Below, piece by piece: positions 5,395-50,586 of a DNA stretch of 64,000 nucleotides. Both the position numbers and the translations under genes were made by a program. The notes under the pieces were generated by a model. That model was not told the origin of the DNA. It did no database searches and worked only from the letters and a program-made list of their open reading frames with translations. Within the stretch, counting starts at the first letter, position 1; each line of letters starts with the position of its first letter. The stretch comes from Heterotrichella gracilis (taxonomy: Eukaryota > Sar > Xanthophyceae > Tribonematales > Xanthonemataceae): the NCBI GenBank assembly GCA_032358255.1, contig JAULBX010014203.1:1-64000 (forward strand), in the 5' to 3' direction.

Positions 5395-5650
5395 GTGATG
5401 ATAACCCCACTGATCCAGTGGTACGATCGGACACCCTCGCGGTGGAAGGTCTTAGGTTCGAATCCCATCAGTAGAAATTCTCAGATGCCTTTCGGGGCAC
5501 CCAGATCTGAATTTCAAAGGCTACTGATGAGGCCCCGTGGCGGGGGCCGAAACCGGTATAGCCAGCCATTTTACCTCACACGTCTGATGTACCAAATTTG
5601 GTACCTGGCTTTGTGCCCTGACGCAAAAACACACAAAAACACACAATAAA
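5395..5650 (+). mobile_element. tRNA-related SINE carrying a hammerhead ribozyme core
   Basis: A non-autonomous retroelement of about 255 bp. The head has RNA polymerase III type internal promoter boxes: an A box at 5411-5421 (TGATCCAGTGG, close to consensus) and a canonical B box at 5455-5465 (GGTTCGAATCC), 44 nt apart. The body holds a hammerhead ribozyme core (5519-5563). The 3' part has a 5-bp hairpin with an AAATTT loop (5589-5604) and ends in an A/C-rich tail built on ACACAAAAAC. A second, 5'-truncated copy of the 3' part lies at 16283-16345. Such 5' truncation is typical of LINE-driven copying. The exact 5' boundary and target-site duplications are not clear. The 3' part overlaps the last codons of subtilase B. 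Confidence 0.75.
5519..5563 (+). ncRNA. hammerhead ribozyme, type I, with a palindromic stem III
   Basis: All core elements are visible on the plus strand. Stem I is GGCTA (5519-5523) paired with TAGCC (5559-5563). The core CTGATGA is at 5524-5530. Stem II is GGCCCC/GGGGCC closing a six-base loop (5531-5548). The core GAAA is at 5549-5552. Stem III is ACC/GGT (5552-5557) with no loop, followed by A5558. The predicted self-cleavage site is after A5558. A stem III this short and self-complementary cannot fold well alone. From known examples (newt satellite 2, animal retrozymes, Penelope-like elements) such ribozymes are thought to act as dimers. The core match is exact; activity is inferred. 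Confidence 0.85.
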
Positions 5651-14800: not shown

Positions 14801-17800
14801 GATGATCAGCGCCGCCATCAGACAAGTAATCGTACTATTGCGCTGATCATTCCTCAGTGATCACCCCTCTACCCCAACATGATCAGCCAAGTAATCGTAC
14901 TATTGCAGTGATTATTCCTCAGTGTTCACCCCTCTACCCCAACATGATCAGCGCCGCCTCTGTGCACCCAGGCCAACACAAGGGTCAACCATGCCTTATG
15001 TAAACCCTAGACCCTACACCCTACACCCTAAACCCCAAATTATGCTGCCTGGCCATGCATCCTGCATGCTGCACACCTGCAGCTACAAAGTCTCTGATTG
15101 CTGTGTACTCGTAGCTGGAAAAGGTTGGCCAATCGTCCGGTCCCGGGTTGAGGATCGGTTTTCCCCCTATTGACGCGGAAATGATGTGCGCCCCTTGCTT
15201 GCTGCAGCAGACACATGCACACGGAAATCACTCAAGCAGCAAGGCAGGTTATTGGGGAATTTTATATTTAAATTGGGTACTTCTATCGGGACTGTTGTGG
15301 TGCTGTAATCACTGTGATACTCGAAAGTCCTCCTGCTGCGCAGCCCCTTTTGGTAAAAGTAACCTCGTGAGTGCCTCCCCACATGTCCCACCCCCGCTGC
15401 ACACATAGGGCATCAGAACCAGACGTTAGGCACCCCTGCCAAGGGCCTAGATGTCAGTCCAGAGCAACTGACATGGATGGCACAGAAACGCACCTGCAGT
15501 AATCGATGCAGTCCAGCTCATTTGCTAGCGTGCCCCCCTGTTGCGGGGCAGTGGCAGGGTCCCCCACCACCCCGATGAACCTGCAGGCAAGCATGTGAAC
15601 CTGCCACACAGAAAAAGGAACTTAGACGTCAGAGTAAGGTGACTTCTTTAAGCGCCTCCAACAGTATCGCGAGCCCGGGTTGGCTCCCTGAATGTGACTG
15701 TCAAATAAAATCTTGTAAATCTTGCAAATGAGCAATTCTAAAATTTGACCTTTAGGAATCCCATTTTCTGTTTGTTTGTTTGAATGGGCCATTGCCAGAT
15801 AGAGAAGAGCAATGGAAAGGGCAGGTCGGGAGATGTGCCGCGTCCGGACAGGGGAGAGGAATAGTGCGGGTAAGGACGGCGGAATATACGACCAGAGTTT
15901 ACCATATTTTTATCGTCTCTTGGAAAAAAGACAAGACTATATATTACAGTACCAGGAATTATGAGAGAGGTACCCACATTTTACAACTATGCCAAATAAA
16001 TGCAAAACTTTAAATTCTTGTATACCAAAATGCCCTGGGGAATGTTCTGTACTTACCGCCCAGTTCACGCCCGCCACCCCCTGCCTGTTGTTGCCTACCG
16101 CCCCGATGATGCCTGCACATGAGGTGCCGTGGTACACCAGCGCGGGCTTGTTGTTGAACCTCCTGCCATCGGTGTAATCCATGGGATCATTGGCGGACCT
16201 GGCGAGGGTAAACGGAAAGTAATAAAACAGAAAAGATACATAATTACGCAGCCTGCCCTTGAACAGCCGCGCTTATGCAACATGCACGTCCGGATGGACT
16301 AAATTTGGTCCATGGCTTTGTGTCCTGACGCAAAAGCACGCAATGTGGAGGAAGAGGAGTTGGCCAAGAGAAAGGCATTGCCCCTCGCCCCAGAGATACG
16401 CCACACCCTGCCTGCCGCATGCGCATGGCCAACTGGATCTGCTGATCTGACCCTATTGACTGGAACGCAGGTAACGAACCTGAATATGTACATGTTCAAG
16501 TACCGGTAAATGCATTTGTTTTTTGTTGCCCGCTGTTTTCCCTACCTGGCCAGGGTATCAAAGCCCGGCTCGCTCTGGTTGAAGTTTGCTGCAAGGTCTG
16601 GGTGATGGTAGTCTGCACCCGAGTCGATGATGCACACCTGGGGTAGGGGAGAGCTTCGATTTTGTACTACTCCACCTTCAAGACCCCGGGATCAAAGATG
16701 TGGCGTGCATGGTGTTTGCGTGAAGAGCCTTTTTCTAAATGGCAATGTAGGGGAATTGATAAATTCCGAATAAACTTGAAAGGCGATGCCTCCCTCTTTG
16801 CTATGCCGGGTTTCTCCATGCCCAAAGGGCAAGTTCAAACGACAGGCTGCGCAATCCCTTATTTATTTGGTGCACACCTTGACGGTTTTGCTGCCCGTGG
16901 TGATGTTCCAGGCTTGCTGCGCCCGAACCCGCGTCAGGCCCCATTGCTGGTCAAAGTACCTGTCATTTGCCAGGCGCATGGTGTAGCGCGCCTGGTTGGG
17001 CTCAGCATGCGCCACGCCTGCGGGTGGGAGGGGTGGGGTGTGAGCGCATGGCGTGGTGTGTGGGGGAAAGTATGCACATGGCGTGGGGTGCATGTTGGTG
17101 GGATGGGGGGGAGGGGGGAATACATGGTTGGTGGGGGGGCGGGGGGCGCAGGGAGTGGTGCTCCTGGTGGGCTTGTGTGCAGGGCAATCAGGAACCCTAA
17201 ACCCTAAACATATGCACCGAGTACAGTGCAAAGCAGGCAGACATTCAGGAACATATGCTGCAAGGGGGGTCCAGAAAAAATGTTGACTCACGTGGATCGG
17301 ACAGCAAGCCCGCCACCACGTCTGCCATGCTGCCCCCCTCCCCTGTTACCGCATACTGATGAATCCCCCCTGCAACCCGCCGCAGGTACTCCAAGCCTGC
17401 CCATGTGCCCTCCCCACTGCCGGGGAGGCTGGCAGCTATGCTTTTTGTCACACGCAGGGCAGGTTCGAACCGCACTAGGACATCCCGGGGAGGGTGTGGG
17501 GCGTATGCTGGGGATGGGGCGGGTGCCTGAAGTGGCAAGGAGGAAAAGGATGATCAGGCGGCATGGTACTCAAAATGCCTTCCAAGGTGCAAACGTGTGT
17601 TAATGAAATGCTCCCAGCAGCTGCGCTATGGAAGCATACCCATGTGACAGCGCTATCACTGCGCCGTGGTATTCAACAGTGCTTTAGACGGTGCAAATTA
17701 GTGCCAACGGGGAGTGCTTGCTCCACTGTAGACACTTGGGGGGCATTAGGGTTCCCCTAGGGATTGGTGAGGGTGCCACACGCATACCTGCTGAGCACGC

Positions 17801-49186: not shown

Positions 49187-50586
49187 AGTGCTGCGCAAAA
49201 GCTTTGCAGACTCTAGACATTGTTTGAAGCTTAAGTGGAAGTGAGGAGGGGGCAAAGGGGGGTTGAAGGTTGTGCTGCGGACGTTGCCAGGGTGGACAAC
49301 AAGGTTGCCAGCCTGGCTTGCAGCTGGTTTAGGGTTTAGGGTTTACGGTTTAGGAACAGTGCAGGCTTGAGTGCCGCTGGCACGTGCACGGCACAGCTTC
49401 CCAGCCATGGGAGGGATTTGCACTAAATTGACAGAGAGATATAACTGTTATTGGTTAATTGCTTTACCCATTTGTGGTGGTAAGCGTTGCAGGAACAGGG
49501 CTGTGGCCAGCATGTCGATGATCGACCAGGTGACACTGCATAGGCTCTCAGCTGTGATGAAGTTTCTTGAAGGATAAGCACTGGAAACTGATAGTAGTAA
49601 ATTGTTTTTGGAGCCGCCTTTGATAGAAGTTGTTTGCATAAAGACACTCTCTGGGCGGTCCTGGGCCATGGACGGATGGGGAGTAGAATAACAGAATAAT
49701 GATGAAAGCCCGCTGCAACGCCCTGGGTTGCCCTGGGGTGGTTGGTGTAAGCTAAGGACACCCAGCCTGGGCCATGGAGGAATGGGGAGTAGAAAGTACA
49801 ACTAATGGTTGTACAGCTGAGGTTGTGTCCTCCCCGCTGCGTTTTCTGAGAGCACTCCCCTTTGGAAGACATCCAGCGTCTTTGAAAACCCCGGCAGTTG
49901 TTGCCGTTGCACAAGGCTGCAGCACACAGAGTGCTTTCTAGTTTGTGTTTTTACGTTTCCTGAGCTGGCCAAGCCCCACTTATTCAACCACTGGCGGTGC
50001 CGTTATAATCCCGACACCGCGACAGCTACATATGCATGCACCAGACGATACCAGCCTTGTTCTTGCTGCAAGCGGTGCAAGATACCCTCTTTTGACACTC
50101 AGTAGTCGTTGCGGTGTATTTGGCGCGCAGTTTCTCTCCTGGGACCAAAAAGGGGCGCAGCAATGGGTGCAAACACCCGTTGTGCAGGAGGGCTAACAAC
50201 TGCACGCCATATCAAAAGTAAGTCAGCACCCGGCAGCTCACGCCCGCCCCGAACCTTGACTGCATCGAAACCGTCGCCTTTTTCCAAGGACTCACACACG
50301 CTGCTTGACCCATAGCGCACCGACATCTGAAAATGTTGTCATATAATGCCGTGCAATAGTCAGCTGGGGTTCCGGGAACCTTGGCCAAAACCTCACGACC
50401 ACTGAACCACAGACGCCCTGCACACCCTCTCCTCTCATCCTCTCACACACCCTTTTCCTAACCTGACCCCTCATCGCCACTTCCTCCTGATGCACACCCA
50501 CTGTCCCCATCCTACAGCAGGCACTCCCTTTGCACCACACTGCCTAGAGGCCTGACCTCTCCACCCCCAACGGGGCCCCTTCCACC
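49187..50586. other. intergenic, upstream of the kinase gene
   Basis: It contains a telomere-like run at 49326-49354 and a good plus-strand donor (GTAAGTCAG near 50219), which might close a 5' UTR exon of the kinase gene. No coding exon is supported. Confidence 0.35.
49326..49354 (+). repeat. telomere-like TTTAGGG run
   Basis: Four units of TTTAGGG, one with a changed base (TTTACGG). Shorter runs of CCCTAAA occur at 17192-17209, 15001-15037 and 50931-50944. Confidence 0.8.

What the first reader, a model, noticed from the sequence alone, without database searches (positions are those of the whole stretch)
5519..5563. Hammerhead ribozyme core inside an algal SINE
All invariant hammerhead positions (CTGATGA, GAAA, cleavage-site A) and two perfect helices (stem I 5 bp, stem II 6 bp) are present, together with RNA polymerase III A and B boxes about 60-110 nt upstream. 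The combination of pol III promoter and hammerhead is known from Schistosoma Sm-alpha repeats; I am not aware of a description in a green-algal SINE. The loop-less palindromic stem III (ACCGGT) predicts activity as a dimer, that is in multimeric or circular RNA, as in retrozymes.
Basis: partly seen in the sequence, partly recalled or inferred. Interest (0 to 1): 0.85.

Follow-up and report, generated by a model that had tools for sequence, protein, structure and literature searches.

The report
Composite algal SINE with hammerhead ribozyme
A short jumping element in a green-alga genome joins a head that resembles signal-recognition-particle RNA, a tRNA-like promoter and a hammerhead self-cutting RNA motif that can probably work only when two copies pair; whether it cuts has not been tested.

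Summary
Window 5519-5563 has the invariant hammerhead positions, stem I (5 bp), stem II (6 bp) and a palindromic loop-less stem III. The full descriptor occurs once in the window and in 0 of 400 shuffles. It lies in a dispersed SINE-like repeat (29 of the 33 places matched; the other 4 are a second family, B). Of 14 copies spanning the motif, 9 keep core and both stems, 2 keep the core with stem I 4/5, 3 lost the core.

New: copies reaching further 5' begin with about 200 bp whose start matches the Alu domain of plant SRP (7SL) RNA (40.2 and 31.3 bits). And family B, a 4-copy repeat, ends in a type III hammerhead; the SINE motif is its circular permutation, with stem I paired by other letters.

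Best reading: a 7SL/tRNA composite SINE with a dimer-type hammerhead, probably inactive as monomer. Retrozyme-like circles are not supported: one motif per locus, no truncation spike at the cleavage site. The motif is no better conserved than its flanks, and activity is untested.

The parts
5395..5645 (+). SINE copy in the window, shorter at its 5' end than L002-L005; A/CA-rich 3' end. Its start lies 16 nt before the A-box-like motif, so a short form starting at a pol III start site is an alternative to truncation
5411..5421 (+). A-box-like TGATCCAGTGG
   Evidence: consensus recalled, match imperfect
5455..5465 (+). B box GGTTCGAATCC of a tRNA-like pol III promoter
   Evidence: consensus recalled
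5519..5563 (+). Type I hammerhead motif, predicted cleavage 5558/5559
   Evidence: 81.9 bits with a model built from 11 copies that include this one; next hit in the window 15.3 bits
5519..5523 (+). Stem I 5' strand GGCTA
   Evidence: pairs with 5559-5563
5524..5530 (+). Catalytic core CTGATGA
5531..5548 (+). Stem II (6 bp) with loop GTGGCG; TGGC 5538-5541 could pair with GCCA 5565-5568
   Evidence: loop-loop pairing is inference
5549..5552 (+). Catalytic core GAAA
5552..5557 (+). Palindromic stem III ACCGGT without loop
   Evidence: as monomer only A-U plus CCGG tetraloop, as dimer 6 bp
5559..5563 (+). Stem I 3' strand TAGCC, first bases after the predicted cleavage site
5564..5568 (+). AGCCA, putative stem I internal loop; GCCAGCCAT is shared with family B
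5569..5572 (+). TTTT, possible weak pol III terminator just after the ribozyme
   Evidence: inference
5589..5604 (+). 3' hairpin GTACC-AAATTT-GGTAC; pair 5590-5603 is T-A in 16, G-C in 11 and broken in 1 of 28 copies that hold it
   Evidence: counted by eye

Best explanation
The locus is a copy of a composite SINE of a green alga, probably 5'-truncated. The full unit is: 7SL (SRP Alu-domain)-like head, spacer, tRNA-like region with A/B boxes, type I hammerhead, conserved 3' hairpin, A/CA-rich end. Shown: this order, dispersed copies, motif integrity in 9 of 14 copies, homology of the motif with a type III hammerhead in another repeat. Inferred: a LINE-type reverse transcriptase copies the RNA from its 3' tail, giving 5' truncation. 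In a single transcript stem III cannot close properly and the core is mis-paired, so the RNA survives as a template. When two transcripts meet, ACCGGU pairs with ACCGGU, stem I forms between the strands, loop II UGGC can dock on GCCA, and each molecule can cut the other after A5558. Cleavage would thus depend on RNA concentration or on multimers; whether it serves the element, limits it or is a passenger trait is open. The motif is circularly permuted relative to the type III one; which form is older is not known.
For: Motif and chance test. Copies: 29 SINE places among 33 matches; 9 of 14 motif-spanning copies intact. Head: Plant_SRP 40.2 bits, E 2.1e-8, and 31.3 bits, E 1.2e-5, in the whole genome; only the host SRP gene (109.9 bits) scores higher. 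In L005 the aligned helices hold no non-standard pair; 30/38 identity of the L005 head to the host SRP 5' end, 27/35 for L002. Continuity: L002-L005 478 bp at 92.5%, L002-L003 402 bp at 96.8%. Family B: 40-nt block 92.5% identical to the SINE's; the C30b stretch folds without constraint into the type III hammerhead; stem I TAAGCT/AGCTTA in B, TAGCC/GGCTA in the SINE. Monomer MFE pairs the core away. Target-site duplications: 14 bp in L012, 10 bp in L015.
Against: No activity data. The motif is no better conserved than its flanks: 26/627 mismatching cells against 30/593 (spacer) and 48/938 (tail), and it holds more gap cells (40 against 8 and 10), mostly from insertions in stem II of L005 and L011. 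The active dimer (-45.4 kcal/mol, one stem I unscored) is not the predicted best dimer (-52.4). Unconstrained folding gives the hammerhead in 1 of 4 family-B copies; a shorter C30b segment did not give it (z -0.80). Target-site duplications of 10 bp or more in 2 of 29 copies, 7-8 bp matches in 6 others, none found in the rest. Head scores are below Rfam's gathering score of 105 bits, and only 4 places carry head sequence. No partner LINE is known; I made no search for reverse transcriptases. TTTT at 5569-5572 might end pol III transcripts before the tail.
Confidence: 0.6

Rival explanations
1. The hammerhead is a passenger: a real ribozyme sequence captured with the RNA from which the SINE was built, without activity or role in the element now.
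For: No excess conservation over flanks; the monomer folds otherwise; no truncation spike at the cleavage site; insertions in stem II of two copies.
Against: 9 of 14 copies, including the four that extend into the 7SL-like head, keep core and stem I; stem I letters differ from family B yet pair, which suggests selection at some time; palindromic stem III is a described route to dimer action (PMC3088659 and PMC7229834 passages).
Confidence: 0.3
2. Retrozyme-like life cycle: multimeric SINE RNA is cut by the hammerhead, circularised and reverse-transcribed.
For: Stem III resembles that of amphibian retrozyme hammerheads (PMC7229834 passages); homologous circular permutations of one ribozyme in the genome would fit an ancestral tandem or circular RNA; L015 aligns from 5555 with a duplication that overlaps it through 5559, so a start at the cleavage site cannot be excluded there.
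Against: 12 motif hits in 12 different loci of the 30 scanned, no tandem arrays; common 3' end and varied 5' truncations.
Confidence: 0.07
3. Chance resemblance to a hammerhead.
For: The bare core pattern is near its background in this genome (16 against 12); no Rfam match in the window and none of the SINE in the whole-genome RF00163 search.
Against: 0 of 400 shuffles hold the full descriptor; 40-nt homology with the type III hammerhead of family B; the same block, but for one base in loop II, sits in hammerheads of two viral contigs.
Confidence: 0.03

Closest known systems
Schistosoma Sm-alpha SINE-like repeats (passages of PMC8490949 and PMC6155905)
   Same: SINE-like repeat with type I hammerhead (pol III promoter recalled, not seen in the passages)
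   Different: The Sm-alpha hammerhead is reported as very fast; here stem III is loop-less, and the element has a 7SL-like head and sits in an alga as solitary copies
Amphibian (newt, axolotl) repeats and retrozymes (PMC7229834 and PMC6155905 passages)
   Same: Type I hammerhead with one-pair stem III and palindromic tetraloop that works far better as dimer
   Different: Axolotl repeats give multimeric and circular RNA; no tandem copies seen here, RNA not tested
SINE1 (7SL-derived) elements: Alu, B1, Tu, hagfish SINE1-1_EBu (PMC7245038 passages)
   Same: Head from the SRP Alu domain; 7SL/tRNA chimeras exist in tree shrews and bushbaby
   Different: In the passages seen reported from Euarchontoglires and hagfish, with a putative marsupial family; no hammerhead is mentioned for them there
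Plant LTR retrozymes and Penelope-like elements with hammerheads (PMC6155905 passages)
   Same: Hammerheads in eukaryotic retroelements; type III in plants
   Different: SINE organisation; no LTR or reverse transcriptase seen in the unit
Hammerheads in IMG/VR contigs L081 and L082
   Same: Core, stem II and loop II identical to family-B copy C30b over 31-32 nt; one base differs from the window SINE
   Different: Closed stem III and viral-contig context; shared descent or convergence not resolved

Membership tests
Hammerhead ribozyme, type I | CUGANGA, GAAA, UH cleavage site in a three-stem junction open at stem I | tested here: met
Hammerhead ribozyme, type I | Stem III able to form in the molecule that cleaves | tested here: inconclusive
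   Only as a dimer, which is not the predicted optimum; monomer fold sequesters the core
Hammerhead ribozyme, type I | Rfam RF00163 at gathering score | tested here: not met
Hammerhead ribozyme, type I | Self-cleavage | not testable with these tools
   needs an assay
SINE | Short, dispersed, pol III boxes, common 3' end, 5' truncation | tested here: met
SINE | Target-site duplications | tested here: inconclusive
   14 bp and 10 bp in 2 of 29 copies; 7-8 bp matches in 6; none found in the others
SINE | 3' tail shared with a LINE | tested here: inconclusive
   28 tail places; no upstream element shared by tail-only copies was seen; no reverse-transcriptase search made
SINE1 (7SL-derived) | Head homologous to SRP RNA Alu domain | tested here: met
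   below the gathering score, which is set for the entire RNA
Retrozyme | Hammerheads in tandem units | tested here: not met
   12 motif hits in 12 different loci of 30 scanned
Retrozyme | Circular RNA | not testable with these tools
   needs RNA data

The most novel reading that the evidence does not exclude
The first 7SL-derived SINE outside vertebrates, and the first SINE to join an SRP-like head to a hammerhead that works only between two transcripts: a built-in copy-number sensor that destroys the element's RNA when it is abundant and leaves single RNAs free to retrotranspose.
Probability: 0.2. Interest if true: 0.85.

Novelty: new variant of a known kind. Interest (0 to 1): 0.62.

Why it matters
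In the papers seen, SRP-derived SINE heads are reported only from mammals and hagfish, so an algal case would mean that the Alu domain was recruited far outside animals, which bears on the idea that SRP9/14 docking helps SINEs reach ribosomes. A dimer-only hammerhead inside a SINE would offer a simple test of why self-cleaving motifs persist in retroelements. Homologous type I and type III hammerheads in one genome also give a natural case of circular permutation of a ribozyme.

Tried and rejected
Rfam scans of the window and of the SINE gave no hammerhead. Whole-genome searches gave one RF00163 place (E 3.7) and two RF00008 places (E 3.97 and 6.03): L077 and L079 did not look like hammerheads on reading, L078 is family B. 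Idea that truncated copies start at the cleavage site: not supported, the 23 starts run from about 5422 to 5585, the nearest being L015 (5555, ambiguous through 5559) and L029 (5561). Idea that tail-only copies belong to a LINE: no shared upstream element seen. Idea that family B is a mobile element with ends set by the hammerhead: three of four copies stay alike about 12 nt past it and no convincing target-site duplication was found; three of its reading frames gave no Pfam match. RuBisCO large subunit gave no match in the assembly.

Papers: PMC4209133, PMC2941103, PMC3334697 and PMC108972 are not held. Of held papers only search listings and passages were seen. That I know of no description of this combination rests on the ten searches in an open-licence library; the 12 papers listed do not hold the words hammerhead ribozyme, so that search says little. 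The claim is weak.

Full report
Observation. The sequence at 5519-5563 is as described: GGCTA-CTGATGA-GGCCCC-GTGGCG-GGGGCC-GAA-ACCGGT-A-TAGCC, a type I hammerhead (ends in stem I) with cleavage predicted between A5558 and T5559. A descriptor requiring core, stem II of at least 4 bp, stem I 5/5 and at least two stem III pairs, written after seeing the motif, finds one hit in the window and none in 400 dinucleotide shuffles, both strands. The bare core pattern is not remarkable genome-wide: 16 matches against 12 for the reversed control. Of those 16, 8 are SINE copies, 3 are family B (below), and 5 (L031, L036, L039, L043, L046) lie in other sequence as read, L036 in a tandem repeat.

The repeat. 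The window is part of contig C143 of a 68.5 Mb assembly. The query 5381-5640 matches 33 places: 29 SINE copies (L001-L029) and 4 places of family B that match only the 30-40 nt core block (one fetched as L030). SINE copies not cut by a contig end share the 3' end. In its hairpin, T5590-A5603 is T-A in 16, G-C in 11 and broken in 1 of the 28 copies that hold it (counted by eye; possibly one ancestral change). Copies are truncated at many 5' points. A target-site duplication is clear in L012 (14 bp) and likely in L015 (10 bp); 6 others show 7-8 bp matches that may be chance, and 21 of 29 show none of 7 bp or more. Of the 14 copies that span the motif, 9 (L001-L008, L018) keep core, stem II and stem I 5/5, L011 and L020 keep the core with stem I 4/5, and L009, L010, L013 have lost the core. 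The motif is not more conserved than its flanks: 26/627 mismatching cells against 30/593 in the spacer and 48/938 in the tail, with 40 gap cells against 8 and 10, mostly from insertions in stem II of L005 and L011. This gives no support for selection on the copies.

The 7SL-like head. Copies L002-L005 continue upstream of the tRNA-like part in one common sequence; a search with it finds these 4 places: L002 and L005 reach a common 5' boundary, L003 is truncated, L004 is cut by a contig end. Rfam Plant_SRP matches its start at 31.3 bits (L002) and 40.2 bits (L005). In the whole-genome search these are the second and third of 3 matches (E 2.1e-8 and 1.2e-5) after one clear SRP gene on C2 (109.9 bits, over the cut-off). 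In L005 the helices aligned show no non-standard pair; in L002 there are six marked positions. The head is 30/38 (L005) and 27/35 (L002) identical to the host SRP gene at its 5' end. Both scores lie below the gathering score of 105 bits, set for the entire 305-position RNA, most of which is absent here. In passages of PMC7245038 and PMC10886601 such heads (SINE1) are reported from Euarchontoglires and hagfish, with a putative family in marsupials.

Family B. A second repeat of about 2.6-3.1 kb has four places in the genome by its 3' end and the same four by its body. Its 40-nt core block is 92.5% identical to the SINE's. Here the cleavage strand lies upstream: GGTC^TAAGCT-GCCAGCCATG..CATG-CAA-AGCTTA-CTGATGA-stem II-GAAACC, with a stem III of 9 pairs and one bulge in copy C30b. 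That stretch of C30b folds without constraint into this structure; the other three do not as MFE, and C30a has lost part of the core. A shorter stretch of C30b did not fold so. RF00008 gives 20 bits for C30b, below its gathering score of 48.5. Stem I is TAAGCT/AGCTTA in B and TAGCC/GGCTA in the SINE: both pair, with different letters, and GCCAGCCAT follows in both (overlapping stem I in the SINE). Type I and type III forms are circular permutations of each other (PMC10085705 passages), so the SINE motif is best seen as a permuted relative of the B ribozyme. Loop II keeps TGGC in the four B copies and in 8 of the 9 intact SINE copies, L005 being the exception; it can pair with GCCA in the stem I internal loop. 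Pairing between stems I and II is said to be likely in about 40% of hammerheads (PMC3088659 passage). The pairing is inference here.

Mechanism. As a single molecule the SINE motif folds so that ACTG of stem I and core pairs with CGGT (-23.8 kcal/mol). Two strands joined through ACCGGU with one stem I score -45.4 kcal/mol in a nested evaluation that cannot include the second stem I, against -52.4 for the best predicted dimer, so the active dimer is possible but is not the predicted optimum. Palindromic stem III with dimer action is described for amphibian repeats and proposed for others (passages). I therefore expect cleavage only between two RNAs or in multimers. A circular, retrozyme-like cycle is not supported: 12 motif hits in 12 different loci of 30 scanned, and a common 3' end.

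Host. One Plant_SRP gene over cut-off, 43 Chloroa_b-bind places, and a protein at L080 whose best PDB chains are 7pi0_S (named CP26), 9is4_S and 6kac_S (7pi0 and 6kac recalled as Dunaliella and Chlamydomonas) indicate a chlorophyte. The species is unknown.

Viral matches. The 31-nt pattern CTGATGAGGCCCCRTGGCRGGGGCCGAAACC occurs in two IMG/VR contigs and in none of genome contigs; both are identical to family-B copy C30b over 31-32 nt and differ from the window SINE by one base. A looser pattern with free stem letters finds 7 contigs: 5 fold by MFE as hammerheads with closed stem III, one (L086) can be read as one but folds otherwise, one (L084) looks like chance. Stem GGCCCC/GGGGCC with loops of varied length occurs in 13 contigs. 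So this stem II is recurrent in viral hammerheads, and the identity to the alga may be convergence or old transfer.

Noticed in passing
L048 (C30:88000-94000), L049 (C148), L054 (C346), L055 (C30): Four-copy, 2.6-3.1 kb gene-like repeat (family B) ending in a type III hammerhead; last 320 bp about 90% alike between pairs of copies that are about 76-79% alike elsewhere; three reading frames gave no Pfam match.
   Followed up: partly
L081-L083 and L088-L097 (IMG/VR): 13 viral contigs with core plus GGCCCC/GGGGCC stem II; L081 and L082 identical to family-B copy C30b over 31-32 nt. L088-L097 were read, not folded.
   Followed up: partly
L005 and L011: SINE copies whose stem II hairpin has grown by about 20 nt, in L011 as an inverted repeat.
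   Followed up: no
L002, L011, L012, L015, L028: A shared repeat of about 70-280 bp lies in these SINE loci, at the contig end in L002, L011 and L012.
   Followed up: no
window 15001-15035, 49326-49354: Telomere-like ACCCTAC / GGTTTAG arrays inside the window; family B also holds CCCTAAA runs.
   Followed up: no
L048 and L055 (C30 copies of family B): A direct repeat of about 120-134 bp, 93-94% alike, some 540 bp apart, inside two of the four family-B copies; could be a nested small element.
   Followed up: no
window, seven reading frames of 238-389 aa: Seven of the 11 window ORFs of at least 220 aa were scanned and gave no Pfam match.
   Followed up: no
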